IMG/VR virus record: IMGVR_UViG_3300027754_000330
Location: 1-29,154 of that record
Strand: one strand, 5' to 3'
From: a virus
DNA length: 29,154 bases
In this document: piece after piece, positions 1-23,825 of the stretch
Numbering within the stretch: position 1 is the first letter of the stretch
How the letters are laid out: every line of letters begins with the position of its first letter
The notes under the pieces: model-generated
Databases searched by the model: none
The model's input: the letters and a program-made list of their open reading frames with translations, nothing else
What the model was told of the DNA's origin: nothing
Made by a program: the position numbers and the translations under genes

Positions 1-1626
1 GCGAACGCTCTCCCGAGACTTTACTGCAGCAGCTCCGTTGCGACAACCCTCACGGGCTCGATCGTTCCACCGCTTCCGTTCCGCTTCAAGGCGACGAAGG
101 GAACCGTGGACGGATCTGCCTACATCGGATCGCCGGGTCTCCTCGAGATTCCTGACTCACGCTACCACTGGGGCGTGAAGTTCGAGCGTCTGCCTGCGAC
201 AGCTTCCATCTCAAGCGCCGTGATGAACTCCAACGATGGGACCGAGTTCAATCCTCTTATCCTTTCCTACTCGAAGATGCAGGGAATCCAGAAGCTCGAC
301 GCTCTCGTGACTGGATCCGATGCCGATATCTTCAACGCGAATAAGTTCACTCTCGCTAGGGTCGCACTTTCCAACACATCACTAACGGATGTCACGGGAA
401 CTGTCGAAGCTCACATGAAGGAGACGGCTTACATCAGGAATGGAGTTCCGAGCACAACGGACTACAGGATCGCTGATGCCGCTCTTGGTGGAAGCCGAAT
501 CACCTTCGCCTCACTGCTTTCAGGTTCGGCGAACACATTCAACAAGTTCGCTGAGTACGCAAAGTTCTCGACGATGTTCTACGGTGGATTCGACGGAGTC
601 AACATCCTCGACGCAGCTTCTGCGAAGCTCGGGGATCGTGCCACCTCAACGGAGTCCGGTGGGCTCGCGGCAGGTGGTGTTGAGCCGATCGCAAGATCAG
701 GTCTCGGTTACGACCCGGCGGGCAGCAGCCTTAGCAACAACGCTGTGAACTCCTACAGGGTCGCTTCGAAGCTCATGACTGACAAGTACACCGTCAATGT
801 CAATGTGATCGCAACGCCCGGCGTCCGCGAGCCGCTCGTGACCGACTACCTCGCTCGCAGGCTTTCGTCCTACGCTCTTGGAATGTACGTTCTTGATGCT
901 CCGGCTTACTCCGACGCAAATGTTAGAATCTTTGAGGATTCTGCGTTGAAGCCGAACGTCACGAAGACCGCTGACGCTGTTACCGCAAGGTCACTCAACA
1001 ACAACTACGTCGCTACCTACTTCCCGGATGTGTTCGTCAATGATACAACAACGAACAGAAGGGTCAAGGCGCCCGCCTCCATCGCTGCTCTCGGCGCTCT
1101 TGCGTACAGCGACAGAGTCGCCTACCCATGGTACGCGCCGGCTGGATTCAACAGGGCTGCTCTTGACTTCGTCACCAACGTTGAAGTAAGGCTTAACACA
1201 TCCGATCGCGACTACCTGTACGATAACAGAATTAACCCAATCGCGACCTTCCCTGGTAACGGTTTCGTTATCTTCGGACAGAAGACACTCCAGGTTTCGA
1301 AGTCGGCCTTCGATAGGGTCAACGTTCGCAGGCTCTTCCTCGAGCTCAAGCGCGTTATCCAGGACGTGGCACGTGGCCTTCTGTTCGAGCCCAACGACGC
1401 GACAACGAGGCAGTCTTTCATCGATCGAGCCACCCCGCTTCTGAGTCTCATCAAGGCGCAGGCTGGTATCGAGCAGTTCAGGATCGTCATGGATTCAACG
1501 AATAACACTGCTGCCGATGTTGCCGCGTACAGGTTGAATGGTCGAATTGTTGTGGTTCCAACAAGAGCGGTAGAATTCATCGCTGTCGACTTTATCATCA
1601 CACCGGCGGGCGTCGAGTTCGTCTAA
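1..1626 (+). CDS. Tail sheath protein, C-terminal part (5' end outside window)
   Basis: This is the contractile tail sheath subunit, which polymerises around the tail tube and contracts at infection. The reading frame is open from base 1, so the gene starts upstream; a GTG at 106 is only an internal codon. The visible 541 residues end in the conserved sheath C-terminal domain: a VNVRRL helix start near visible residue 440, then GLLFEPND, then a last strand ending AVEFIAVDF. The same blocks recur in the next gene (VNVRRL, GLLFEPN, TAEFISIDF), so the two are paralogues. A shared central GGFDG(V/L)NI(L/F)D block and a VTDY/ITDY block support this. Family assignment is confident. Whether this copy forms the main sheath or a minority or decorating sheath cannot be read from sequence. 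Confidence 0.88.
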   Translation, partial: ANALPRLYCSSSVATTLTGSIVPPLPFRFKATKGTVDGSAYIGSPGLLEIPDSRYHWGVKFERLPATASISSAVMNSNDGTEFNPLILSYSKMQGIQKLDALVTGSDADIFNANKFTLARVALSNTSLTDVTGTVEAHMKETAYIRNGVPSTTDYRIADAALGGSRITFASLLSGSANTFNKFAEYAKFSTMFYGGFDGVNILDAASAKLGDRATSTESGGLAAGGVEPIARSGLGYDPAGSSLSNNAVNSYRVASKLMTDKYTVNVNVIATPGVREPLVTDYLARRLSSYALGMYVLDAPAYSDANVRIFEDSALKPNVTKTADAVTARSLNNNYVATYFPDVFVNDTTTNRRVKAPASIAALGALAYSDRVAYPWYAPAGFNRAALDFVTNVEVRLNTSDRDYLYDNRINPIATFPGNGFVIFGQKTLQVSKSAFDRVNVRRLFLELKRVIQDVARGLLFEPNDATTRQSFIDRATPLLSLIKAQAGIEQFRIVMDSTNNTAADVAAYRLNGRIVVVPTRAVEFIAVDFIITPAGVEFV

Positions 1627-1665: not shown

Positions 1666-4600
1666 ATGGCTGCGCCAGGCATAACACTAAACGAGATCGA
1701 TAGCACCGGTGGTGTAACGGAGGTTCAACCCTCGGGCCGCTCCGCCGGTGTGATTGGAACGGCAACGCAGGGAACGGCGTTCGTGCCGATCACCTTCGCG
1801 AATAACACACAGTTCACAACTGAGTTCGGCAATCCGGATGCGAATTATCACGCTCCCTTTGCCCTGTACCAGTGGCTTAGCAACGCCTCAGCTGGAACAT
1901 ACGTCAGGGTTCTCGGCGCCGGAGACGGAAACAAGAGAACGACAGGCGCCACAAACGCAGGAAGCGTGACAAATGCAGGATTCGTGGTCGGCTCCCGGAA
2001 GGTTCAGGTGTCCAACGGTCAGCTCGGCAACAATCCCTACGCGACTGCCGGCGGTCTGGAAGGTAGGACGTACTTCCTCGGATGCTACATGTCCGAGTCT
2101 GCGGGCTCCTGGTTACTTTCCGAGCCAGGAATCCAGACATCGACGGCAGCCCAGCCGATCGTTCGCGGCGTTCTTTTCGCAGCGTCGGGAGTTCAGATCA
2201 CCGTATCAAGCTCAGCGCCGGGAGCGACATCTGATATCTACTCATTAGCTGCGACGACTGCCAGCCCTGCAAAAGGCTGGTTCACCGGATCGCTCGATCT
2301 CCGGAGCGGAGAGCAGACATTCGTGCTCTTCCTGAACGGACACACCGATTCCGCTGGTTACCCAAGCATCCTCACGGCATCATTCAACCCAACTTCCGAC
2401 TCCTACTTCGGAGCAAAGTTCAACAGCAACCCACTTCTTCTCGAAGAGCACGGCTACGTCCTCTACAATCACTACGACGTTCTGGACGCTTTCGCAGTCC
2501 CAACTGGATCCGGAGTTGCAGCTGAGGCTGCGATCCGTCGTGTTAGCACGTCAGCCGCTGTCGAAGAGATCGTGTTCTGCCTTTCCGGCTCTCAGTCAAG
2601 GAACAACGGAACCACAACATTCCCGAACTACGACGGATTCGAGGACAGGTACGGTCATCCGATGACCCCGTACGTAACATCCCAGAACTTCGGTGGGACT
2701 CGCTACAATCTCTTCAAGATCCACGCTCGTGGCGACGGTGCAGCGACCAATGAACTGTACAGGGTCGCGATCGAAAGCATCAAGTACCCTGCTGCTGGCT
2801 CTTACGCTACGTTCACCGTGAAGATTCTTAGCTTTACCGGAGAGGACGGCTACGCGACCGTATACGAGACATACTCTGGATGCGATCTTGATCCTGATAG
2901 CGACAACTTCATTGGAAAGAAGATCGGTGACCAGAACACCTACTTCGATTTCGATCGTACCGCTGATGCCCAGAAGATCATTGAGGAAGGACTCTACGGC
3001 AAGGTCTCACGTCGGGTCAGAGTTGAGCTCTCTGATGAAGTCATCAACAAGGTCATCCCGTCGAACACTATTCCCGTCGGTTCACGTGGTCTCTACCACC
3101 TAGTGACCTCTGGGTCTGGTTTCATGTCGACTGGTTCATCGGGCCCGTCGGCTCACCTCAACGTTCCCCTGACGAACGCGCGTGAGGCGCCGGTCTTCTT
3201 CCGTCGCAGCATCAACGTAGGAGACGTTGCCGGTGGCGCGAACGCCACGGGCGAGAGCAAGCTCTACTGGGGACCCCAGTTCGGCCTCTACAACTCAACG
3301 ACTCGTCCTAACGATGGAGTCTCGACCTCCACCGAGACACTCGGTGCTGGCGGACTTTCAAGCTACACCAAGTACTTCCCGAAGTACCACACGACCTATC
3401 AGAACCCGTGGGTCGGTGACAATGATGGCGCAGCCACCGTCAACGGCTCCGTGGTGGACGCTGACCTCTTCAACAGGAACCTCTTTACGCTTGAGAACAT
3501 CCAGGTTCAGACAAGCTCCGGCGGTACTCTCGACAGAGACCGTTGGGACGAGGCTGTGTACCAGAGGGACGGAATTCTTGACGCCAGCCTCGGTGGACGT
3601 TTCATCGACACAACGATCGATTTCCCGTCCAGTACTCCGTCATCTTACCTCAAGTTCGTGACCTTCATGCAGGGAGGCTTCGATGGTCTCAACATCTTCG
3701 ATGCAGATAAATTCTACATGCGTGATGCTGCGGCTCGTCGAGAGATGGACTACAGCAACCAGGGTCAGCTGAACGGACCGACGGTCGCTGCCTATCGCAA
3801 GGCGGTAGACATCATGGGTAACAAGACTTACTCGGACATCAGCGTCCTCGCGATTCCGGACACTCGTCACCCCGCGATCACCGACTACGCTCTCTCGGCG
3901 ATGCAGACAAAGTTCGATGCTCTTTACATCGCCGATGTCGAGCTGAAGGACGATAACAACAACTTCGTGACTGCCTCCATCAACGCCGGGTCTTCATACC
4001 CCAACGTCAACGTCGCGTTCACATCAACGAGGTTCAAGAATCGCAGCCTCAACAGCTCATTCGGTGCTGCTTACTTCCCGGACGTGAACGTCAGCGTTGA
4101 CCCGGGAACCGGCGTAGCAGTTAGCACACGCCTTCCAGCTTCGACCCTGGTCCTCGGCGCCTACGCGCAGAACGATCGGATCGGATTCACTTGGAGCGCA
4201 CCGGCAGGCTACACAAGAGCGGTTATTCCTGGAAACTCCCTTAGCACGATACTCAACAACGATAACATCAACACCGTTTACGATGCTGGTATCAACCCGA
4301 TCGTTTCGGTTCCTGGCGCGAATATCGTGATCAATGGACAGAGGACAACTCTCGTTGAGGGCTCGGCTCTTGATCGTGTTAACGTCCGTCGTCTGCTCAT
4401 CGAGGTTCGTCGTCGAGTGAAGGCTGTTGCTTACGGTCTTCTTTTCGAGCCGAACAGAGAGTCGACCATCGCTCGTTTCAATGCTGCCGTTACACCGATA
4501 ATGAAGCAGATCCAGTCCCAGCGCGGTGTTGAGAGGTATCGCGTGCAGATTGACACCACCACCACCACACAGGCTGACATAGAGAATAACACGATTCGTG

Positions 4601-4683
4601 GTAAGATCTACCTGCAGCCGACAAAGACCGCAGAGTTCATCTCGATTGATTTCGAGGCGACAAATGCTTCAACCTTTGTCTAA
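1666..4683 (+). CDS. Tail sheath protein, second tandem copy (1005 aa)
   Basis: A full-length contractile tail sheath subunit. The N-terminus MAAPGITLNEID matches the usual sheath start (SPGVYVNEID type), the strand that links neighbouring subunits. The C-terminal domain has VNVRRLLIEVRRRV, YGLLFEPNRES and a final TAEFISIDF strand. At 1005 residues it is much longer than T4 gp18 (659), with the extra length in the middle (roughly residues 130-560), where insertion domains exposed on the sheath surface normally sit. The ATG at 1666 follows AAGGAG (1652-1657) at 8-base spacing. It lies between a paralogous sheath gene and the tube gene, the standard sheath-tube order. Family is certain from the terminal blocks; the role of having two copies is unknown. 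Confidence 0.92.
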   Translation: MAAPGITLNEIDSTGGVTEVQPSGRSAGVIGTATQGTAFVPITFANNTQFTTEFGNPDANYHAPFALYQWLSNASAGTYVRVLGAGDGNKRTTGATNAGSVTNAGFVVGSRKVQVSNGQLGNNPYATAGGLEGRTYFLGCYMSESAGSWLLSEPGIQTSTAAQPIVRGVLFAASGVQITVSSSAPGATSDIYSLAATTASPAKGWFTGSLDLRSGEQTFVLFLNGHTDSAGYPSILTASFNPTSDSYFGAKFNSNPLLLEEHGYVLYNHYDVLDAFAVPTGSGVAAEAAIRRVSTSAAVEEIVFCLSGSQSRNNGTTTFPNYDGFEDRYGHPMTPYVTSQNFGGTRYNLFKIHARGDGAATNELYRVAIESIKYPAAGSYATFTVKILSFTGEDGYATVYETYSGCDLDPDSDNFIGKKIGDQNTYFDFDRTADAQKIIEEGLYGKVSRRVRVELSDEVINKVIPSNTIPVGSRGLYHLVTSGSGFMSTGSSGPSAHLNVPLTNAREAPVFFRRSINVGDVAGGANATGESKLYWGPQFGLYNSTTRPNDGVSTSTETLGAGGLSSYTKYFPKYHTTYQNPWVGDNDGAATVNGSVVDADLFNRNLFTLENIQVQTSSGGTLDRDRWDEAVYQRDGILDASLGGRFIDTTIDFPSSTPSSYLKFVTFMQGGFDGLNIFDADKFYMRDAAARREMDYSNQGQLNGPTVAAYRKAVDIMGNKTYSDISVLAIPDTRHPAITDYALSAMQTKFDALYIADVELKDDNNNFVTASINAGSSYPNVNVAFTSTRFKNRSLNSSFGAAYFPDVNVSVDPGTGVAVSTRLPASTLVLGAYAQNDRIGFTWSAPAGYTRAVIPGNSLSTILNNDNINTVYDAGINPIVSVPGANIVINGQRTTLVEGSALDRVNVRRLLIEVRRRVKAVAYGLLFEPNRESTIARFNAAVTPIMKQIQSQRGVERYRVQIDTTTTTQADIENNTIRGKIYLQPTKTAEFISIDFEATNASTFV

Positions 4684-5252: not shown

Positions 5253-5289
5253 ATCTGGTCCATGGTATATTTACTATCATGGACCAGAT
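5253..5289 (+). promoter_or_regulatory. Hairpin enclosing the start codon of the HNH gene
   Basis: Twelve-base perfect arms (ATCTGGTCCATG at 5253-5264 and its complement at 5278-5289) flank a 13-base AT-rich loop. The right arm contains the ATG at 5279. In any transcript reading in from the tube gene the initiation codon would be base-paired, and no Shine-Dalgarno sequence is visible upstream. The expected effect is strong repression of translation on read-through mRNA. T4 I-TevI is controlled by an analogous sequestering hairpin; that this one works the same way is inference. Confidence 0.65.
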
Positions 5290-6085
5290 TTCTTTTAAGT
5301 GCCCTTCTTGCGTAGACTATTCGACCGACAGCCTGGATTCGCTTCGAATCCACTGCCAGAAACGCCATGGAATCACCGCACGTGATCTCTACGTGAGCTT
5401 GTTTATTCCTGGCGGCCAAGAACCCACGTGCGGCTGTGGGTGCGGGACGACGACCAAGTTTAACTCCCTTCAGAAGGGATTCTCGGGGTACATTCTCGGA
5501 CATGCATCTCGCGTCAAGAATAATTGGGGAAATAATAAGGCTGCGCTGGCTAAGAGCCTTGAAGCGCGTCGCAAAGAAGAGCGATGGGGTTGTAATCCGT
5601 GGAATCGAGGTAAAACGAAAGAAAATGACTCCGATTTCGCGAAGTTATGCGAAATTGCGTACGGATCTGACAAAGAAAGAAAGAGAAAGTCAGAAATGAT
5701 GACGAGACATTGGCAGACCGGGGTCATCGTTCCGCTCACCGGCTCGGCTCATCCGCAGTGGAAGGGCGGGACATCGACAATCGGGACGCTGTGCCACGGC
5801 AGCTCGCGACTCTACAAGCTCTGGAAGTTCCCAGCCCTGCAGCGAGCAGGGTTCAAGTGCGAGCGTTGCGCCGCGACCGACGATCTCCACGTCCATCACA
5901 GCGAGGTTCGTATGGCGGAGATCATCCATCGGTGCGCCCCCACGTCGGATGAGATCAGCTGGGAGGATCAGGCAGCGTGGGTCGAGCGGGTGATCGACTG
6001 GCACGTTGAGATGATGCCCACCGCCGAGGTTCTCTGCCATCGCTGCCACGGTGAGGAGCACCCATCACTTAACTTTGATCCGTGA
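5279..6085 (+). CDS. Free-standing HNH homing endonuclease with N-terminal zinc finger
   Basis: A 268-residue protein expected to nick or cut a phage target lacking this gene and so spread by recombination. In order: a C2H2-type finger (C8, C11, H25, H30), a second cysteine-rich stretch (CGCGCGTTTKF, near 50), a NUMOD3-like DNA-binding motif (NPWNRGKTKEND, near 107), and an HNH nuclease domain with zinc pairs C194/C197 and C253/C256, catalytic-type H204-x-H206-H207, and CHRCH at 253-257. The ATG at 5279 is chosen because the finger requires it, although it lacks a Shine-Dalgarno sequence and lies inside a hairpin. The first two thirds look more AT-rich than neighbouring genes while the HNH end is GC-rich, suggesting foreign and possibly mosaic origin. 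It sits between the tail tube and chaperone genes with no intron, so it is a stand-alone element. Confidence 0.88.
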   Translation: MDQISFKCPSCVDYSTDSLDSLRIHCQKRHGITARDLYVSLFIPGGQEPTCGCGCGTTTKFNSLQKGFSGYILGHASRVKNNWGNNKAALAKSLEARRKEERWGCNPWNRGKTKENDSDFAKLCEIAYGSDKERKRKSEMMTRHWQTGVIVPLTGSAHPQWKGGTSTIGTLCHGSSRLYKLWKFPALQRAGFKCERCAATDDLHVHHSEVRMAEIIHRCAPTSDEISWEDQAAWVERVIDWHVEMMPTAEVLCHRCHGEEHPSLNFDP

Positions 6086-15188: not shown

Positions 15189-15482
15189 ATGGCCACCAGC
15201 AGGTATCAGAAAGATCAGATCATCGGGGCGCCTCAACGGCTCGCTTCCTCACAGGCGATCCTGCGAATTCGACAGGCAATCGCGAATGGTTCAATAGCGA
15301 CCCGTGAGATCACCACCACCGAAGCGCAACGTCTCGATCACATCGCTGGTGATCTCTACGGAGATGGCAAGCTCTGGTGGGTTATCGCCATCGCTTCTGG
15401 GGTCGGCTGGTGGTTGCAGGTCCCGCCCGGGACTCGTCTCCTTGCTCCGACAAACGTGAACTCAGTTCTGGAGCTTGTGTAA
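15189..15482 (+). CDS. LysM-like baseplate protein (T4 gp53 / P2 gpX type)
   Basis: A 97-residue protein with one LysM-like fold: ITTTEAQRLDHIAGDLYGDGKLWWVIAIAS, then a VPPGTRLLAPTN end. The pattern (first strand, GDLYGDGKLWW helix pair, PPGT closing strand) is shared by P2 gpX and the LysM part of T4 gp53. In those phages the protein belongs to the baseplate hub or wedge and binds other tail proteins or cell-wall glycan. The start is supported by GGGGAGAG four to ten bases before the ATG. It is followed after two bases by the TTG-started hub gene, implying translational coupling. Confidence in the fold is high; T4 versus P2 equivalence is open. Confidence 0.8.
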   Translation: MATSRYQKDQIIGAPQRLASSQAILRIRQAIANGSIATREITTTEAQRLDHIAGDLYGDGKLWWVIAIASGVGWWLQVPPGTRLLAPTNVNSVLELV

Positions 15483-15484
15483 CC

Positions 15485-18400
15485 TTGCCACGTTCACCAC
15501 TTCTCAATGCTGCAACCAACGAGCTTGCTCAGTACTTCGGCGCGATTACCGACGCTGATTACATCGACAGGACATGGGAGGCACGCCTTGTCGCCCGCGC
15601 GAATAGAAAAGCTGCTTCTACCACAACAAATCTACAGAGCTCATATCGAACCGATCTCGATAAAATTAACGCGCTCGGGGACGTGATCAGGGTCGCTGCT
15701 GAGCCGAGGACAGGATCTCCATCAGCAGAGCATATCTCTGATCTCATCAACGGAGCACTCAGCATCAGCGCCTTCCTCGGAAATGTGAATAATGTTGATC
15801 AATTGAGCGTCGAGGACAAGTACGGTTCACAGTTCAAGATCGCTGGTATCGGAGAAAAGAAGAGCATCTTTTCGGGCGCAAATTTCGAAAAGATTAGCGG
15901 AATCGGAGCTCCGAGCAAGATAAACACGTCCCCGACGGAACCCACGAATCAGGCTCCGAACGTGTACGCTGTAGCAGTCGCGAATCCAGCTATGGGACCA
16001 GCGACGAGGGACATGGGACCGATCGAGGTTTTCATGAACGCGATTCCGACGCTTGAACTGTCGAAATGCGTTCCATATGTGAACGTTGAGCTTGTCACCT
16101 CACGTCCAGCGACGGGTGCGGATGGCAATACGGTCGCCCCGACTCTGCTCAGGTTTCTCAACCCACCGGGACTCGGGTCTGCCGACTCTGCGATGTTAGG
16201 CGCTCAAGCGACGCCAGTGGGATCCGAGGTTCTCGATTTTGGAATCGGAACACGATCTGGCATGGAGCTTTTCACAGCTCCTCAGACGCTCGTCAACATG
16301 GACGCTCACGGAGCGGAGTACGTACCGGTTATCGATCGACTTCGCCCTCTCGCCTCCCTCGGTGAGCTTAGCGTCTCTGTTAAGATGCAGAAGAACACCT
16401 CATCATTCTCACAGATCAGGATGGAGATCACGGTACATGATCGATCTCGACTTCGTGAGATCGCTGATCTCGTCCGACCTGATCTCTACGGAAGAACATT
16501 CATCGACGTCACTTACGGGTGGTCACATCCTGACGGGGGACTCAAATCAAGCAACTCGTTCGGAAAGTTCCTTGACGCTTTGAAGGTGGAGGGTCGCTAC
16601 AGGATTGCGACATCAAGTTACAACTTCGAGGAAGGCGGAGGAGTAAAAATCTCTCTAAATCTCTTTTCAGTGGGAAGCACGGATCTTCTAAGCTTATCAA
16701 CCCGAGCAACTCGGCAGTGGCAGCATGATCTTGAACGCATAGTTCGGAAAGTGAAAGAAGCCCTAGCGCTCGTTCGAGCTTCGGGCCTCCCTGGTCCAGG
16801 GATGGCAAAGTACGATTTCGTGAATTCAATCACCGATCCAACATCACTCATTAAAGCTGCGAGCGATAGCAGCTTCATGAATGCTCTTGACTCCCTTCAG
16901 GAGCAGAAAGGAAAGGGCATCACTATGGATAAGAGCGATGCCATAGTGAATGCTTTTGCTGACGCTTTCGGAGAGGTGACTCTGAGCAAGGGTGCGTGGA
17001 AAGCGAAACCAGGGACAAATGGCACAGTTTTTGAAATCGCTGATAAACTAAAGACAAGCTACACGGAGATGGTCGGAAAAATTCCAAAAATGGGAGATGA
17101 TGGCATCTCAGATGATTTTTTCACGGATCTTGAGGGACGACGTGCCGGAGGTTGGTACGACTCGAATGGAGGCACGGCACAGCAGGCACTGGATTACGTG
17201 AAAGGTAAGAACCCGGCCGAATCGGGCGGTTTCTCATCGCTGGGTTCGATTTTTATGTCACTCGTCGCGAATCCGCTTGCTGATTCAGGTCAGTACGAGG
17301 AAGTTCAGGTCATCTTTTACCCTCTCAATGATTACGCGGGCGCTCTTCACGGCTGTCCCCTAAGCTGGTTTCCGATCAGCAAGAACAAGCTCAGCTCCTA
17401 TGTGTCCGAGTTCGTGACCAAAAATCCAGAGATGTCGCTCCATCAGATGATTGAGCTGCTCAACAGTAGATTCGTTGGGTTTCCTGTCGACCCAGCTTAC
17501 ATGATGGCAGATTTTTACAACAAAGATAAGGCTTCGAAGGGAACGGCTGAGTTTGCCAAGGGCAAGAACGCAGCTTCATTCTTGGCGACCCAGGAGGAAC
17601 GCTTAGAGAAAGTTGGTATCTACGAAAAGAAATTCATTCAACCGAAGCTTGGAATTTTCGTTGAGGGAGCTCCTCTTCTCGACGCGCGTGGAGAGAAGCT
17701 TCGCTACTCGGATGGAACAGCAAAGACAATAATAAAGATTCATGTCTTTGACTCAAGCGCAACAGCCACCAGAACTCTCGGTGAAATGCTCACGGCAGCT
17801 CGTGATGACCAACTCGGGGTGATAGTCGGACCGGTCTCTGATGCAACACGTGAGGCAGTCGGCAGCCCGGGTAAGGAGTTCATCACTCAAAGACGTCAGG
17901 ATCTCAATGCGGTCCTTGAAGCCGGTGAGAAAGCTGGATTGCTGAAAAAGCTTGACACCTCAAACGTTAAAGGAAGCGACGGAAAGCCCATTGAGGGTCT
18001 GCCACCGATGTACTCGGTAGCGGGAGACTACAATGATATCAAACGTCTTGTGTCTGCTGGAATGCCAACCTTCACCTACGGTTCGATGAACTCGGGAATA
18101 ATCAACGCTTCACTTGCGAGCGTATCGAATGCCGGCTTTGGTAATGCCATGATGGTAAGGTCATTTCAGGCTCCCGGCGAGGTGGCACCTGATGTCGTTG
18201 ACGGCGGAGTTCCCATGCAGCTCATTCCAGGTTCACTGAGTCTCTCGACGTTCGGTTGTCCGCTCTTCTTCCCGATGCAACGTGTTTTCGTTGATTTCGG
18301 AACTGGAACTTCAATCGACAACGTGTACTTCGTGCAAGGAGCCGAGCATAAGATCGGTCCATCAGGATTTAAGACTGACGTCAAGCTCAGCTACGGTGAG

Positions 18401-18991
18401 GGCTTCGCGACCTACACAAGCTTGAGCCAGAATCTCGCGATGCTTGCCGTTCGGGTGAAGAATGCAATGTCAGAGAAAGCCCCGAGTGACGCTTCGCCGA
18501 CTGCGCCACCCGCTCCCGTGAAACTCTCTGGTCCCCGGGAAGAGAAGAACGCGATTGATCGCGCAAAGATAAAGGAGCGCGAGTTCCTGCAGGCCGCTGG
18601 TCGCGCGATCGGCAAGTCACTCGCGCCCGCCGCACGCGTTGCAATCGAAGTTCAGATGAAGATCGATGCTGAGCTGCAGAAGGTGAAGGACAGGATCGCG
18701 CTTGAGGTTGAGGAGGCAAAGGTCGCAGCCCAGGCGAAGATCGAGGCGATGATACCGGAGGAGGTCAAGATCGCCGCCGCTGAAGCGCAGAAGAAAGCTG
18801 CCGAGGTTGCTGCGAAGTACGCAGAGGTCCAATCTGACATCGAGCAGGCGAAGAGAATCGTAGAGCTCATCTTGAACGCTGACGAGTACATCGCCGCGAT
18901 GGGAGCTGAAGCTGCCGGGATCGTCATGGCTGCTGCGAAAGAGGAACTCGACCAGCAGCTGAAGGACAAACCGCCCAAGGCTCCGAAGTGA
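15485..18991 (+). CDS. Large baseplate/hub structural protein with C-terminal coiled coil (1168 aa)
   Basis: The frame is open back to 15377, but the upstream part overlaps the gp53-like gene. The TTG at 15485, 11 bases after GGAG (15470-15473) and two bases after the preceding stop, is the likely start (MPRSPLLNAATNELAQYFG). The body contains repeated beta segments typical of baseplate hub proteins: LELSKCVPYVNVELV near 187, RPLASLGELSVSVKMQK followed by RMEITVHDRSRLREIADLV near 285-330, and DLYGRTFIDVTYGW. The region near 940-1000 has PLFFPMQRVFVDFGTGTSIDN and SGFKTDVKLSY strands. The last about 140 residues are an Ala/Glu/Lys helix, probably coiled coil, ending in a Pro/Lys tail. It likely forms part of the hub or a wedge component contacting the hub. 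No lysozyme domain was recognised, and the exact T4 counterpart is not identified. Confidence 0.7.
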   Translation: MPRSPLLNAATNELAQYFGAITDADYIDRTWEARLVARANRKAASTTTNLQSSYRTDLDKINALGDVIRVAAEPRTGSPSAEHISDLINGALSISAFLGNVNNVDQLSVEDKYGSQFKIAGIGEKKSIFSGANFEKISGIGAPSKINTSPTEPTNQAPNVYAVAVANPAMGPATRDMGPIEVFMNAIPTLELSKCVPYVNVELVTSRPATGADGNTVAPTLLRFLNPPGLGSADSAMLGAQATPVGSEVLDFGIGTRSGMELFTAPQTLVNMDAHGAEYVPVIDRLRPLASLGELSVSVKMQKNTSSFSQIRMEITVHDRSRLREIADLVRPDLYGRTFIDVTYGWSHPDGGLKSSNSFGKFLDALKVEGRYRIATSSYNFEEGGGVKISLNLFSVGSTDLLSLSTRATRQWQHDLERIVRKVKEALALVRASGLPGPGMAKYDFVNSITDPTSLIKAASDSSFMNALDSLQEQKGKGITMDKSDAIVNAFADAFGEVTLSKGAWKAKPGTNGTVFEIADKLKTSYTEMVGKIPKMGDDGISDDFFTDLEGRRAGGWYDSNGGTAQQALDYVKGKNPAESGGFSSLGSIFMSLVANPLADSGQYEEVQVIFYPLNDYAGALHGCPLSWFPISKNKLSSYVSEFVTKNPEMSLHQMIELLNSRFVGFPVDPAYMMADFYNKDKASKGTAEFAKGKNAASFLATQEERLEKVGIYEKKFIQPKLGIFVEGAPLLDARGEKLRYSDGTAKTIIKIHVFDSSATATRTLGEMLTAARDDQLGVIVGPVSDATREAVGSPGKEFITQRRQDLNAVLEAGEKAGLLKKLDTSNVKGSDGKPIEGLPPMYSVAGDYNDIKRLVSAGMPTFTYGSMNSGIINASLASVSNAGFGNAMMVRSFQAPGEVAPDVVDGGVPMQLIPGSLSLSTFGCPLFFPMQRVFVDFGTGTSIDNVYFVQGAEHKIGPSGFKTDVKLSYGEGFATYTSLSQNLAMLAVRVKNAMSEKAPSDASPTAPPAPVKLSGPREEKNAIDRAKIKEREFLQAAGRAIGKSLAPAARVAIEVQMKIDAELQKVKDRIALEVEEAKVAAQAKIEAMIPEEVKIAAAEAQKKAAEVAAKYAEVQSDIEQAKRIVELILNADEYIAAMGAEAAGIVMAAAKEELDQQLKDKPPKAPK

Positions 18992-19026
18992 TGTGAAAAA
19001 GTAGGGTGGTCTCGTTAGGGTTGCTC

Positions 19027-20202
19027 ATGCTATCAATCTCGAGATACGCCCTTAACTCACCCAAGAACCTTGTCTTCGAAGGTGGTTCATCCCGTTGGGA
19101 GTCGGAGACTCAAGGATCCTGGATGTTAGGCGACCCTCAGGCATCGATGTCTGTTATCGCTCTCTTCGAGACTCTCGGGATAGAATCACCCGCACCGATC
19201 CCTCCGGAGTATGAGAGATCGATGGATGGCCTCGCGCGTGGCCAAGTTCCGTGGCCCCTTGTCATTCCGATCGGTGCGCTCCGGGATCACGCTGAACGTG
19301 TCAGCAGCATCCTCGAGGAAGCTCTGGAACGTCTCGAGGGCTACGCAGATGTCATGGCTCGCTCACGCCGCGTGCTCGAGGCCCTTCGACCCTGTAGGAT
19401 CGATCTCGCAGCGCTTCGGATCTGCCAGACAGGATCGTCCTCTCACATTCTTGATTCCTTCGAACCAGGACCTGATTTCATGGTTCAACCACCGGTCTAC
19501 TCCCATGCGACCGCAACGGGTCGACTCACGGTGAAGGAGGGCCCGAGGATCCTCACGTTGCAGAAGGATCATCGTCGGATTCTGTCGAGCAGGTTTGACG
19601 GCGGTCAGATGATGCAGATCGACTTTGTGTCTCTCGAGCCCCGAGTCCTTCGCTTGCTTCGAGCTGGTGTTGCACCCATCGACATCTATTCCGACGTCTC
19701 AGAACGTCTCGGGGGGGCCGCGAATCGCAGGCAGGTGAAGCTTGCCACGCTGAAGATGCTTTACGGATCTTCACGGGCTGGTGTAGCCGAGGAAGTCGGA
19801 AATCTTAGCTCCAGCATGGTGAAGCAGATTGAGGATTACTTCGGACTTTCAACCCTTCGGGCACGTCTCGCATCAGATCTGGGACGAAGTGGTATGATCA
19901 AGAGTCACTGGGGCCGGCCGCTCCCGGAAGCTCGTGACCAGCATCTTCTCGTTTCACACTTCACGCAATCCACAGCTGTTGACGTCGCGCTCGGAGGATT
20001 CGGTGACGTCTTGGAACGTGTCAAGGCACTGGATCTCGATGTCGTTCCCTGCTACGTCCTGCATGACGCGCTTCTTGTTGATGTTCATCCGGGCTCGATG
20101 GAGCAGCTGATGGCAATTTCTGACGAAGGAATAGATGTCGAGGGCTTGGGACACTTCGAAGTTTCCCTTTCACCGGCCTATGTATCACAGGAGACTGCAT
20201 GA
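19027..20202 (+). CDS. Family A DNA polymerase, polymerase domain only
   Basis: Template-directed DNA synthesis. The conserved pol I blocks appear in order: TATGRLTVKEGPRILTLQK (TGRL...NLQ block, near 162), motif A QIDFVSLEPRVL with catalytic D199, motif B NRRQVKLATLKMLYGSS with K238 and the Tyr-Gly pair, and motif C CYVLHDALLVDV with H346-D347. The usual HDE reads HDA here. At 391 residues it is only the size of the thumb-palm-fingers part, with no 3'-5' proofreading or 5'-3' nuclease domain. A 5'-3' exonuclease is encoded separately at 23826; a proofreading gene is not in the window. Polymerase and exonuclease on separate genes is known in the myovirus RM378 of Rhodothermus. ATG 19027 is preferred over GTG 19006 because TTAGGG sits six bases before it. 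It is the first replication gene after the tail cluster. Confidence 0.85.
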   Translation: MLSISRYALNSPKNLVFEGGSSRWESETQGSWMLGDPQASMSVIALFETLGIESPAPIPPEYERSMDGLARGQVPWPLVIPIGALRDHAERVSSILEEALERLEGYADVMARSRRVLEALRPCRIDLAALRICQTGSSSHILDSFEPGPDFMVQPPVYSHATATGRLTVKEGPRILTLQKDHRRILSSRFDGGQMMQIDFVSLEPRVLRLLRAGVAPIDIYSDVSERLGGAANRRQVKLATLKMLYGSSRAGVAEEVGNLSSSMVKQIEDYFGLSTLRARLASDLGRSGMIKSHWGRPLPEARDQHLLVSHFTQSTAVDVALGGFGDVLERVKALDLDVVPCYVLHDALLVDVHPGSMEQLMAISDEGIDVEGLGHFEVSLSPAYVSQETA

Positions 20203-21255: not shown

Positions 21256-21549
21256 ATGAAGACGCTGGACAGAAAAAACCTTCGACTCATGATTATGGAA
21301 GCGCTTGATGGAATGCGTCAGTGTTCCGAGTGCGGATCGATGTATGAGGCTGGTGAAGTCCATGAGTGTGGCATGTACGAGGGCGAGAAAGATGAGGACG
21401 AGCTCGATGAGTTCTCAGGTGCCGGTGCGATCGCTGGTTATACGATGCCGCTCGGCATGCGTCCGCCTGGTCCACGTCGCGATGTTGTCAACGTCGCCCG
21501 TCGATCGTTCGGTGGTCTTGGTAAGCGAAAGAAAAGAAAGAACCGCTGA
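21256..21549 (+). CDS. Small protein with zinc-finger-like motif and basic tail (97 aa)
   Basis: Not assigned to a family. The N-terminus MKTLDRKNLRLMIMEALDGM resembles the short helix R-x-x-L-R-x-x-I-x-E-x-L seen at the start of many small phage proteins. Next comes CSECGSMYEAGEVHEC (CxxC...HxC, residues 23-38), a likely single-zinc site, an acidic linker (EGEKDEDELDEF), a Gly-rich GAGAIAGYTMPLGMRPPG segment, and a very basic end (GKRKKRKNR). The ATG is eight bases after the previous stop with a poor Shine-Dalgarno sequence (TTAAAAG), so translation may depend on the gene before it. A role in nucleic acid or protein binding is possible; no more can be said. Confidence 0.62.
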   Translation: MKTLDRKNLRLMIMEALDGMRQCSECGSMYEAGEVHECGMYEGEKDEDELDEFSGAGAIAGYTMPLGMRPPGPRRDVVNVARRSFGGLGKRKKRKNR

Positions 21550-21562
21550 AAAAACTCAACCC

Positions 21563-21570
21563 ATAAATTA
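21563..21570 (+). promoter_or_regulatory. Candidate promoter element ATAAATTA before SSB leader
   Basis: ATAAATTA resembles the T4 late-type TATAAATA with one base inserted and lies 11 bases before the structured leader begins at 21581. A start in this gap would give a transcript whose 5' end is the folded leader. Proposed from position and similarity only. Confidence 0.3.
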
Positions 21571-21580
21571 CAATCTCCCT

Positions 21581-21649
21581 ATGTTCTGGCCCGAAAGGCG
21601 GGACATCGGGTAAACCCCGGAGAGGGGAAGCGAAAGCCGAAACTCTCCG
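21581..21649 (+). ncRNA. Structured 5' leader RNA of the SSB gene
   Basis: Three back-to-back helices fill 69 bases. Helix 1 (21581-21606): ATGTTC pairs with GGACAT, continued by GCC/GGC around a CGAAA loop. Helix 2 (21608-21617): GGG and CCC around TAAA. Helix 3 (21618-21649): CGGAGAG pairs perfectly with CTCTCCG, and inside it a GC-GAAA-GC hairpin. GAAA tetraloops and lack of spacing between helices suggest a compact fold. It is followed by about 40 bases free of G-C pairing potential, rich in A and C, containing the AAGGA ribosome-binding site. In T4, gene 32 mRNA carries a leader pseudoknot followed by an unstructured stretch on which gp32 binds and represses itself; this leader has the same arrangement. 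No known riboswitch or ribozyme consensus was recognised. Confidence 0.6.
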
Positions 21650-21688
21650 TCTATCAACAACAATCAATCAAGGAAAAACTAAAACATC

Positions 21689-22531
21689 ATGGCAATCGAT
21701 CTCGACGCAATCCGCCGCAAGCTCGGCGAACTCTCCGGTAAGAACAACAAGCGTGACCAGCAGTGGAAGCCCGAGGAGGGCAAGGAGTACACGGTACGAC
21801 TCCTGGCATTCCAGAACAACGACGGTCAGCCCTTCAAGGATCGCTGGTACTACTACGGCGTTGGCAACAGCCCAGGTATCCTCGCGCCCTTCCAGTTCGG
21901 CAAGGCCGATCCCATCAAGGAGCTTCGTGGTAAGCTCTACGATGAGGGCAGCGACACGAGCCGTGAGCTCGCGAAGAAGGTTGCTCCGAAGATGCGCACT
22001 TTCGCTCCTGTCATTGTTCGTGGTGAGGAGGACAAGGGCGTTCGAATCTGGTCCTTCGGTAAGATGGTTTACCAGGACATCCTGAACCTCATGCTCGATG
22101 AGGACTACGGCGATGTTACCGATCCGCTCGAGGGCCGCGACATCCGTGTCTCGGTCTCGAAGCTTCCCGGCAAGCAGTTTGCCGACACGAAGATCTCACC
22201 CCGCGCGAAGGTTGAGCCCCTCAGCCGTGACTCCGCCCAGGCGAAGAAGTGGATCGAGTCGATCCCCGAGGTTGACGAGGCTGCGAACCTCAAGCCGTAT
22301 GAGGAGATCGAGAAGATCGTGAATGATTGGATCAACGGTGGCAGCCCGAGCGATACTGGCACCACCCGCGGCGGTCCGGCGCCCAAGGCCGATCCGAAGC
22401 CCGATAAGCTCGCCTCTTTCGATGACGATGAGGACGATGTGAAGCCCGTGAAGCGTTCGAGCGGTGGTCCGAAGGCCGCAGCACGCGATCTCGATGATGC
22501 ATTCGCCGATCTCGAGGACAGCGGGTTCTGA
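21689..22531 (+). CDS. Single-stranded DNA-binding protein (T4 gp32-like)
   Basis: Coats single-stranded DNA at forks and recombination intermediates and recruits partners through an acidic tail. The 280-residue length is near T4 gp32 (301). The N-terminal basic segment (LDAIRRKLGELSGKNNKRDQQW) would mediate cooperative binding; the core has KEYTVRLLAF, DRWYYYGVGN, a SFGKMVYQDILNLM helix and an RDIRVSVSKLPGK strand, with many aromatic residues as in OB-fold DNA binders. From about residue 215 the chain is Gly/Pro/Asp-rich and ends DLDDAFADLEDSGF, the acidic interaction tail. The Cys/His zinc ribbon of T4 gp32 is absent. Its neighbours (UvsX, nuclease, helicase) support the role. AAGGA lies 14 bases before the ATG, a long spacing, behind the structured leader, which suggests translational control. 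Confidence 0.87.
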   Translation: MAIDLDAIRRKLGELSGKNNKRDQQWKPEEGKEYTVRLLAFQNNDGQPFKDRWYYYGVGNSPGILAPFQFGKADPIKELRGKLYDEGSDTSRELAKKVAPKMRTFAPVIVRGEEDKGVRIWSFGKMVYQDILNLMLDEDYGDVTDPLEGRDIRVSVSKLPGKQFADTKISPRAKVEPLSRDSAQAKKWIESIPEVDEAANLKPYEEIEKIVNDWINGGSPSDTGTTRGGPAPKADPKPDKLASFDDDEDDVKPVKRSSGGPKAAARDLDDAFADLEDSGF

Positions 22532-22628: not shown

Positions 22629-23825
22629 ATGGCAAAGAAGGATACTGCAGCAGCGAAGACCGCTGCTGATGATTTCACCAGCGAGCTCATCTCATCCCTA
22701 AACAAGGACCATGGGTCACGAATCGCGTACAACCTCGCGGTCGATGCATCCCCGACGCATGTGAAGCGTTGGATCTCGAGCGGTTGCAAGCAGCTCGACC
22801 TTATCATCGCGAACAGGCCCAGCGGTGGGCTCCCGGAGGGACGTATCGTCGAGATCTTCGGTCCTCCGTCGATCGGAAAGTCGCATATTGCAACGCAGAT
22901 CGCTCGATCCACCCAGGGCATGGGTGGCATCGTAGTCTACATCGATACCGAGAATGGTACCTCGGTCGAGAACTTGGCGGCTCTCGGCGTTGATGTCTCG
23001 AAGCGATTTGTCTACGTCGACACACACTGCACCGAGGAGGTTCTCGACATCGCCGAGAAGACGATCCTGAAGGCAAAGGCGATGGCAAAGGACGTCCCGA
23101 TCACCATCATCTGGGACTCAGTCGCCGCAAGCTCACCCAAGGCTGAGCTCGAGGGTGCCTACGACAAGGATACCATTGGTCTCCAGGCCCGTGCGATCTC
23201 GAAGGGCATGCGAAAGATCACCGGTGTCATCGGTGACCAGAACGTCCTCTTCGTCATCCTCAATCAGATCCGCACAAAGATCGGCGTCATGCACGGTGAT
23301 CCCACGACGACCCCCGGCGGCATGGCGATCCCGTTCCATGCCTCGGTCCGTCTCAAGCTCGGTGCCGGCGCGCCGATCGAGAACAAGCAGGGCGAGGCGA
23401 TCGGCATCAACGTCTGGGCGAAGACGATCAAGAACAAGGTCGCGCCTCCCTTCCGCAAGGTGCACTTCCGGATCATCTTCGGTCAGGGCATTGAGGAGCA
23501 TGAGGAGGTGTTCGACGTCCTCCGCGAGCACGGTCCGGACATGGTGAACGATCATGAGGTGAGCATCGAGGGCACCGCAGCGTGGAAGACGATGCGAGTC
23601 ACGAATGAGAAGAACGAGAATATCGTGGAGAAGAAGTTCCACAAGACCGATTTCGGTCAGATGTGGAAGGATCCGCAGTACAAGCCGTGGATTGATGGTC
23701 TTCTCGAGAGAGCTCTCATCCGAACCGCGGTGAACACGGCCGATCTTGACATCGATCCTGAGTCCTACGAGGAGATGCGAGCTCTTCGTGACCAGATGAC
23801 CGGCGACATCGACCCGGAGGCCTAA
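22629..23825 (+). CDS. uvsX: RecA-like recombinase (UvsX)
   Basis: Forms ATP-dependent filaments on single-stranded DNA and carries out strand exchange for recombination-dependent replication and repair. Seen in sequence: the SGCKQLDLIIAN...SGGLPEGRIVEI lead-in, Walker A GPPSIGKS (residues 78-85), a TENGTS segment near 105, Walker B ITIIWDSVAA with D163, LFVILNQIRTKIGVMHGDPT for the loop 1 region, and TTPGGMAIPFHASVRLKL for the DNA-binding loop 2 region and following strand. The 398-residue length matches T4 UvsX (391). AAGGAG lies five bases before the ATG. It is preceded by a terminator, so it probably has its own promoter, and is followed without any gap by the nuclease gene, implying coupling. 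It would load onto SSB-coated DNA made by the gene upstream. Confidence 0.92.
   Translation: MAKKDTAAAKTAADDFTSELISSLNKDHGSRIAYNLAVDASPTHVKRWISSGCKQLDLIIANRPSGGLPEGRIVEIFGPPSIGKSHIATQIARSTQGMGGIVVYIDTENGTSVENLAALGVDVSKRFVYVDTHCTEEVLDIAEKTILKAKAMAKDVPITIIWDSVAASSPKAELEGAYDKDTIGLQARAISKGMRKITGVIGDQNVLFVILNQIRTKIGVMHGDPTTTPGGMAIPFHASVRLKLGAGAPIENKQGEAIGINVWAKTIKNKVAPPFRKVHFRIIFGQGIEEHEEVFDVLREHGPDMVNDHEVSIEGTAAWKTMRVTNEKNENIVEKKFHKTDFGQMWKDPQYKPWIDGLLERALIRTAVNTADLDIDPESYEEMRALRDQMTGDIDPEA

What the first reader, a model, noticed from the sequence alone, without database searches (positions are those of the whole stretch)
21563..21691. Compact three-helix leader RNA ahead of the SSB gene: possible new autoregulatory operator
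The sequence shows three contiguous helices with GAAA-type loops (21581-21649), then about 40 bases of A/C-rich unstructured RNA holding a weakly spaced ribosome-binding site, then the ATG of a gp32-like protein. T4 gene 32 is known to repress its own translation by binding cooperatively to an unstructured stretch nucleated at a leader pseudoknot. The same arrangement here, with a quite different RNA fold, suggests an independently built SSB-binding operator. A pseudoknot between helix 2 and the flanks is possible because CGGG at 21607 can pair with alternative C runs.
Basis: partly seen in the sequence, partly recalled or inferred. Interest (0 to 1): 0.75.

Follow-up and report, generated by a model that had tools for sequence, protein, structure and literature searches.

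The report
Conserved leader RNA of phage SSB gene
The messenger RNA for a phage single-stranded-DNA-binding protein begins with two evolutionarily conserved hairpins followed by a bare, unpaired ribosome-binding stretch, and related phages carry 7-base repeats there that match the footprint of one protein molecule, so the protein probably switches off its own synthesis by coating this RNA.

Summary
The leader is real, structured and conserved. A sigma70-like promoter (-35 21546-21551, 17-nt spacer, -10 21569-21574) puts the predicted +1 at 21581, the first base of hairpin 1. Hairpins 21581-21606 and 21618-21649 show strong compensatory change in 18 relatives (11 of 22 pairs; 0/500 shuffles). 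Then comes a nearly G-free unpaired tract (unpaired probability 0.89) holding the Shine-Dalgarno, then a gp32-fold SSB. An exact IMG/VR scan finds the motif 21 times, always just upstream of this SSB. A sister clade has a differently sequenced two-hairpin leader (15 of 20 pairs compensatory). No Rfam match.

In the wider SSB family, leaders carry Shine-Dalgarno-phased 7-8-nt repeats (38% of 101 leaders significant at lag 7; 44% of 54 fresh leaders; 3% of controls), matching the 7+/-1-nt site size of T4 gp32, and often a hairpin beginning exactly at +1. This supports autogenous repression by cooperative SSB coating, as in T4 gene 32 but with other RNA parts. The window's own tract has no clear heptads, and 5'-hairpin mRNA stabilisation remains a live rival. 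New variant of a known kind; binding and repression are untested.

The parts
21546..21551 (+). -35 element CTGAAA of the predicted ssb promoter (overlaps the stop codon of the upstream ORF 21256-21549)
   Evidence: 136 of 143 leaders score >=11 for a TTGAAC/TTGACA-16/17/18-TATAAT promoter (38% of shuffled sequences do), 124 of 143 with a 17-nt spacer; position
21569..21574 (+). -10 element TACAAT
21577..21579 (+). CCC that can extend hairpin 1 by pairing with GGG 21608-21610; lies upstream of the predicted +1
   Evidence: covaries (CG to UA and CG to AU) in alignment A3; function unexplained
21581..21581 (+). predicted transcription start (+1, 7th nt after the -10)
   Evidence: In D-group relatives this position is G in 56% and A in 18%, never C, and hairpins tend to begin here; no RNA mapping
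21581..21606 (+). hairpin 1: 21581-21588 pairs with 21599-21606; upper pairs 21590-21591 with 21597-21598
   Evidence: 98.3% of cells paired, 4 pairs with two-sided change; same fold predicted de novo by RNAalifold
21618..21649 (+). hairpin 2: stem 21618-21624/21643-21649, conserved purine internal loop 21625-21629/21638-21642, GC-GAAA-GC cap 21630-21637
   Evidence: 5 of 7 stem pairs with two-sided change; loop sequence nearly invariant while the stem varies
21650..21688 (+). unpaired A/C-rich tract (UCUAUCAACAACAAUCAAUCAAGGAAAAACUAAAACAUC); proposed SSB-coating lattice
   Evidence: mean unpaired probability 0.89 for 21654-21688 versus 0.48 in the CDS start; two G in 35 nt; group A mean 0.78 over -45..-1 versus 0.43 for control genes in the same loci
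21670..21674 (+). Shine-Dalgarno AAGGA, 14 nt before ATG
   Evidence: sequence
21689..22531 (+). gp32-like single-stranded-DNA-binding protein, 280 aa, acidic C-terminal tail, no cysteine (so no zinc finger)
22629..23825 (+). UvsX/RecA-like recombinase, next gene (its leader served as a control)
   Evidence: PF00154 E=1.5e-60

Best explanation
This is the 5' untranslated leader of the ssb mRNA and most likely an autogenous translational operator. Transcription starts at about 21581, so hairpin 1 forms at the very 5' end. Hairpins 1 and 2 form a compact 5' domain; the tract after it is kept single-stranded and nearly G-free and contains the ribosome-binding site. When SSB exceeds the single-stranded DNA available, SSB is nucleated at or beside hairpin 2, and monomers then coat the tract cooperatively up to and over the Shine-Dalgarno, blocking ribosomes. 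The 5' hairpin would also protect the message while it is repressed. Shown by computation: promoter-like sequence, the two covarying hairpins, the unpaired tract, exclusive linkage to ssb, the gp32 fold, and the 7-nt phasing in relatives. Inferred: that SSB is the ligand, that hairpin 2 nucleates, and that translation is repressed.
For: Covariation in group A (11/22 pairs, 23 cells, 0/500 shuffles) and sister group B (15/20 pairs, 90 cells, 0/500; GNRA cap GUGA/GCGA/GAGA, with a G-C to C-G swap of its closing pair in L187). Motif scan of all IMG/VR: 21 of 21 stretches lie just upstream of this SSB; the 3 hits in 84,980 species genomes are not at SSB genes. One strong copy per contig, at ssb. 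The A and B models each weakly find the other's leader at the exact place (R1 on L182 E=0.037; R2 on G005 E=0.031 and on the window E=0.21). A+B form one clade of the SSB tree (100/96). In the other SSB leaders, 7-nt periodicity: z=14.9 at lag 7 and 10.4 at lag 14; 38% of 101 individually significant versus 3% of control gene leaders and 3% of other intergenic stretches in the same loci; replicated in 54 new leaders, 44%, z=13.9; phased on the Shine-Dalgarno with U peaks at -3, -10, -17. T4 gp32 occludes 7+/-1 nt (PMC5892887). The T4 gene 32 operator is a folded 5' element plus an unpaired tract with UUAAA repeats over the RBS (PMC535899, PMC3014915). The protein has the gp32 fold.
Against: No binding or expression data. 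The window's own tract shows CAAT/CAAC repeats (group A excess at lags 4, 7 and 8) rather than clear heptads. An unpaired A-rich RBS with a 5' hairpin is also what a stable, strongly translated mRNA would have. T4 repeats are 5 nt, and neither T4 nor the cultured relatives examined show lag 7. Predicted unpairedness of the heptad leaders is only modestly above control (0.52 versus 0.44). Leaders are related by descent, so the z-scores overstate the number of independent events. Group A sequences are close relatives apart from L018, L019/L021 and L025/L026.
Confidence: 0.6

Rival explanations
1. mRNA stability and strong-expression element. The hairpin at +1 shields the 5' triphosphate end from RppH/RNase E, as in ompA, and the unpaired A-rich tract is a ribosome (S1) landing site, so that ssb is made in large amounts; SSB does not bind specifically.
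For: In foldable D-group leaders the first paired base is exactly at the predicted +1 in 37 of 52, and the 5' 26 nt fold better than shuffles more often than the RBS side does (39% versus 3% at p<=0.05); when folding starts right after the -10, position 6-7 is the first paired base in 27 of 71 versus about 2% in shuffles. 5'-terminal stem-loops stabilise mRNA (Emory 1992, Bouvet and Belasco 1992, in the reference list of PMC3997798).
Against: Does not predict 7-nt phasing on the Shine-Dalgarno, nor a nearly invariant internal loop and GNRA cap in hairpin 2, which lies away from the 5' end. It is compatible with the operator model; both may hold.
Confidence: 0.25
2. DNA-level operator or processing site: the dyad over the start site (21577-21610) is bound by a transcription factor, or the extended hairpin in read-through transcripts is cut by RNase III.
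For: The dyad extends 3-6 bp upstream of the predicted +1 in groups A and B, and some of those pairs covary (CCC/GGG to UCC/GGA; CUC/GAG to CUU/AAG).
Against: G-U pairs and one-sided G-C/G-U changes are common in hairpin 1, hairpin 2 lies well inside the transcript, and most other SSB leaders do not extend the dyad this far.
Confidence: 0.07
3. The heptad arrays come from polymerase slippage or a host repeat system (compare the TAACTGA heptamers of Beggiatoaceae) and say nothing about SSB.
For: Heptanucleotide repeats are known before start codons elsewhere and slippage was proposed for them (PMC4679880).
Against: Other gene leaders and other intergenic stretches of the same phage loci show no lag-7 signal; the units are imperfect, vary in sequence and are phased on the Shine-Dalgarno.
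Confidence: 0.08

Closest known systems
Phage T4 / RB69 gene 32 autogenous translational operator
   Same: gp32-fold SSB; folded 5' element, then an unpaired G-poor tract covering the RBS; repeats in the tract (in relatives of the window).
   Different: Two hairpins, the second covarying and GNRA-capped, instead of a pseudoknot; A/C-rich tract (window) or 7-8-nt units (relatives) instead of UUAAA units; the leader begins at its own promoter; autoregulation untested.
5'-terminal stem-loop mRNA stabilisers (ompA type)
   Same: Hairpin at the first transcribed base.
   Different: A second conserved hairpin, and restriction to one gene family.
Cyanophage gp32 leaders (for example S-RIM4, S-SSM4)
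   Same: A/C-rich, G-poor tract before the Shine-Dalgarno, with a small hairpin upstream in S-RIM4.
   Different: No heptad signal, different hairpin, distant SSB (about 25% identity).
STAXI motif (Weinberg 2010, PMC2864571) near ssb genes
   Same: Structured element near SSB genes.
   Different: STAXI is a tandem pseudoknot; the Rfam scan of the window found no match.

Membership tests
T4-type gene 32 autogenous operator | Downstream gene encodes a gp32-fold SSB | tested here: met
   Pfam PF08804; Foldseek to 2a1k, 1gpc, 8gme
T4-type gene 32 autogenous operator | 5' pseudoknot as nucleation element | tested here: not met
   RNAalifold and covariation give two simple hairpins; RNAalifold cannot predict pseudoknots, and inspection of the hairpin-1 loop against CGGG in the alignment found no conserved pairing
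T4-type gene 32 autogenous operator | Unstructured tract over the RBS | tested here: met
T4-type gene 32 autogenous operator | UUAAA/UAAA repeats in the tract | tested here: not met
   Window tract is CAAC/CAAU; relatives have 7-8-nt units
T4-type gene 32 autogenous operator | SSB binds the leader and represses translation | not testable with these tools
   needs gel shift/footprinting and a reporter
Rfam families | Match at gathering score | tested here: not met
   0 matches in the window and in 7 related loci; the permissive search gave only weak matches to eukaryotic RNA families, E 1.9 or worse
5'-terminal stem-loop mRNA stabiliser | Stem begins at the first transcribed base | tested here: inconclusive
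   True for the predicted +1; +1 itself not mapped

The most novel reading that the evidence does not exclude
SSB operators in this large uncultivated phage group encode the SSB register in the mRNA: each monomer of the coating filament reads one 7-nt unit, phased so that the last unit is the Shine-Dalgarno, and in the window's clade the same job is done by a GNRA-capped hairpin that nucleates coating of an A/C-rich tract. That would explain how a supposedly sequence-blind protein finds its own message.
Probability: 0.42. Interest if true: 0.82.

Novelty: new variant of a known kind. Interest (0 to 1): 0.68.

Why it matters
How T4 gp32, a nearly sequence-independent single-strand binder, picks out its own mRNA is still described as unclear (PMC535899), and study in diverse phages was called for (PMC3014915). 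This gives two new covarying leader folds and many natural leaders whose repeat spacing equals the protein's site size. The spacing, number and sequence of units can be varied directly, so the question becomes testable in E. coli reporters.

Tried and rejected
Middle helix GGGUAAACCC: broken in L016, L019, L021, L025 and L026 (my first count of it, used columns one off and is void). Pseudoknot of CGGG 21607-21610 with the hairpin-1 loop: not kept in L019, L021, L025 or L026 (by inspection of the alignment). Mini-ORF AUGUUCUGGCCCGAAAGGCGGGACAUCGGGUAA (21581-21613, MFWPERRDIG): by eye on the leaders, interrupted in L037, read through in L018, without ATG in L019, L021, L025 and L026, not conserved in group B; rejected as a conserved leader peptide. 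Transcription terminator: hairpin 2 has no U run after it. Known Rfam RNA: none. DNA similarity to cultured phages: none. PDB sequence search with the SSB profile: nothing, although the fold search succeeded. Genome contigs motif hits L095-L097: no SSB or UvsX homology nearby. Searches failed on malformed structure strings, on a term, one search was a report with wrongly formed fields.

Full report
WHAT WAS CHECKED. The window is a fragment of an uncultivated contractile-tail phage (tail sheath, tube, tape measure; gp32-like SSB, UvsX, 5'-3' exonuclease, DnaB-like helicase). The finding sits in the 139-nt gap between an unnamed ORF (21256-21549) and the SSB gene (21689-22531). The case therefore rests on relatives.

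RELATIVES. A scan of IMG/VR with the SSB gave 73 loci; two further scans with SSB alignments gave more, and 143 distinct leaders were extracted. They fall into group A (window type), group B (57-60% identical SSB, also a two-hairpin leader) and the rest (D). An SSB tree places A and B each as a clade and A+B as one clade with support 100/96.

STRUCTURE. In group A (18 leaders) RNAalifold predicts, without being told, hairpin 1 and hairpin 2. 95.9% of cells pair, 11 of 22 pairs have changes on both sides, shuffles reach none of these values except the number of pair types (8 of 500), and slid structures collapse to 34-54% paired. In group B (20 leaders) 15 of 20 pairs have two-sided changes in 90 cells, again 0/500; hairpin 2 there is capped by a GNRA tetraloop (GUGA, GCGA, GAGA) and L187 swaps the closing G-C to C-G. 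In group A the cap is GCGAAAGC inside a nearly invariant purine internal loop while the outer stem varies freely, which is what a recognised hairpin looks like.

WHERE IT OCCURS. A 21-base pattern from hairpin 2 matches 21 stretches in 2.9 million viral contigs; all 21 lie just upstream of this SSB. The three matches in 84,980 species genomes show no SSB or UvsX nearby. A covariance model of group A gives one strong hit per contig, always at ssb, in contigs of up to 171 kb. The A and B models each weakly recover the other's leader in place (E 0.037, 0.031, 0.21). No Rfam family matches at gathering score.

PROMOTER AND 5' END. 136 of 143 leaders have a good TTGAAC-16/17/18-TATAAT-like promoter, mostly with a 17-nt spacer (38% of shuffled sequences reach the same score). 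In the window this puts +1 at 21581, the first base of hairpin 1. Among D leaders position 7 after the -10 is G or A in 74% and never C, and of those whose 5' end folds, 37 of 52 have their first base pair exactly at +1. Folded from directly after the -10, position 6-7 is the first paired base in 27 of 71, against about 2% in shuffles. Groups A and B are odd in that the dyad continues 3-6 bp upstream of the predicted +1 and some of those pairs covary; this is unexplained.

THE UNPAIRED TRACT AND THE HEPTADS. The window tract 21654-21688 is unpaired with mean probability 0.89 and has two G in 35 nt, both in the Shine-Dalgarno. Group A averages 0.78 and group B 0.66 over -45..-1, against 0.43 and 0.42 for control genes in the same loci. 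In the D leaders the 60 nt before ATG repeat with a 7-nt period: z 14.9 at lag 7, 10.4 at lag 14, with lags 8 and 15 also raised; uvsX leaders of the same loci show no lag-7 excess. Leader by leader, 38% are significant at lag 7 and 20% at lag 8, against 3% and 1% of 181 control gene leaders and 3% and 4% of 91 other intergenic stretches. I then fetched a fresh set, kept 54 leaders less than 75% alike to the old ones and to each other, and repeated the same test: 44% at lag 7, z 13.9. Aligned on the Shine-Dalgarno the U peaks fall at -3, -10 and -17, the Shine-Dalgarno being the last unit, as in ATTAAACATTAAGGAG. T4 gp32 occupies 7+/-1 nt (PMC5892887). T4 itself has 5-nt UUAAA units, and neither T4 nor the cultured relatives examined show lag 7.

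MECHANISM. T4 gp32 represses its own mRNA by nucleating at a leader pseudoknot and coating an unpaired UUAAA-repeat tract over the RBS (PMC535899, PMC3014915). The window protein has the gp32 fold, though no cysteine and so no zinc finger, and an acidic tail. The simplest reading is the same logic with different RNA parts: hairpin 2 as nucleation site, A/C-rich tract as lattice. Shown: sequence, structure, linkage, phasing in relatives. Inferred: ligand, nucleation, repression.

LIMITS. No experiment. The heptads are in relatives, not clearly in the window (group A has raised lags 4, 7 and 8 from CAAT/CAAC units). Descent inflates z-scores; the per-leader fractions and the clean controls are the safer evidence. 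A stabilising 5' hairpin plus an open ribosome site explains part of the data and may coexist with repression. The heptad test was chosen after seeing the first leaders; the fresh set is the out-of-sample check. The literature library holds open-licence papers only, so a prior report of these repeats cannot be excluded.

Noticed in passing
L118, L120, L149, L106, L285 and other D-group leaders, 60 nt before ssb ATG: Shine-Dalgarno-phased 7-8-nt repeats (for example ATTAAACATTAAGGAG) in SSB leaders of a large phage group, absent from other leaders and intergenic stretches of the same loci.
   Followed up: yes
window 21577-21579 with 21608-21610; same in groups A and B: The hairpin-1 dyad extends upstream of the predicted +1 and covaries; either +1 is earlier than thought or the dyad acts on DNA.
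   Followed up: partly
window 21581-21613: A 10-codon mini-ORF (MFWPERRDIG) begins at the predicted +1 in many group A leaders, but is broken in several relatives.
   Followed up: yes
L415 (S-RIM4), L251 (S-SSM4) upstream of gp32: Cultured cyanophages have an A/C-rich, G-poor tract before the gp32 Shine-Dalgarno, with a small hairpin upstream in S-RIM4, resembling the window's layout.
   Followed up: partly
window 106-1626 and 1666-4683: Two adjacent genes both match tail sheath families, the second twice as long (1005 aa).
   Followed up: no
window 5279-6085: Weak match to an HNH endonuclease family (E=1.3e-4) between tail tube and baseplate hub genes, perhaps a homing endonuclease.
   Followed up: no
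window 19006-20202: 398-aa ORF with a weak match to DNA polymerase A (PF00476, 24 bits, below the cut-off), preceded by a 1204-aa ORF (15377-18991) without Pfam match; possibly a split or diverged polymerase.
   Followed up: no
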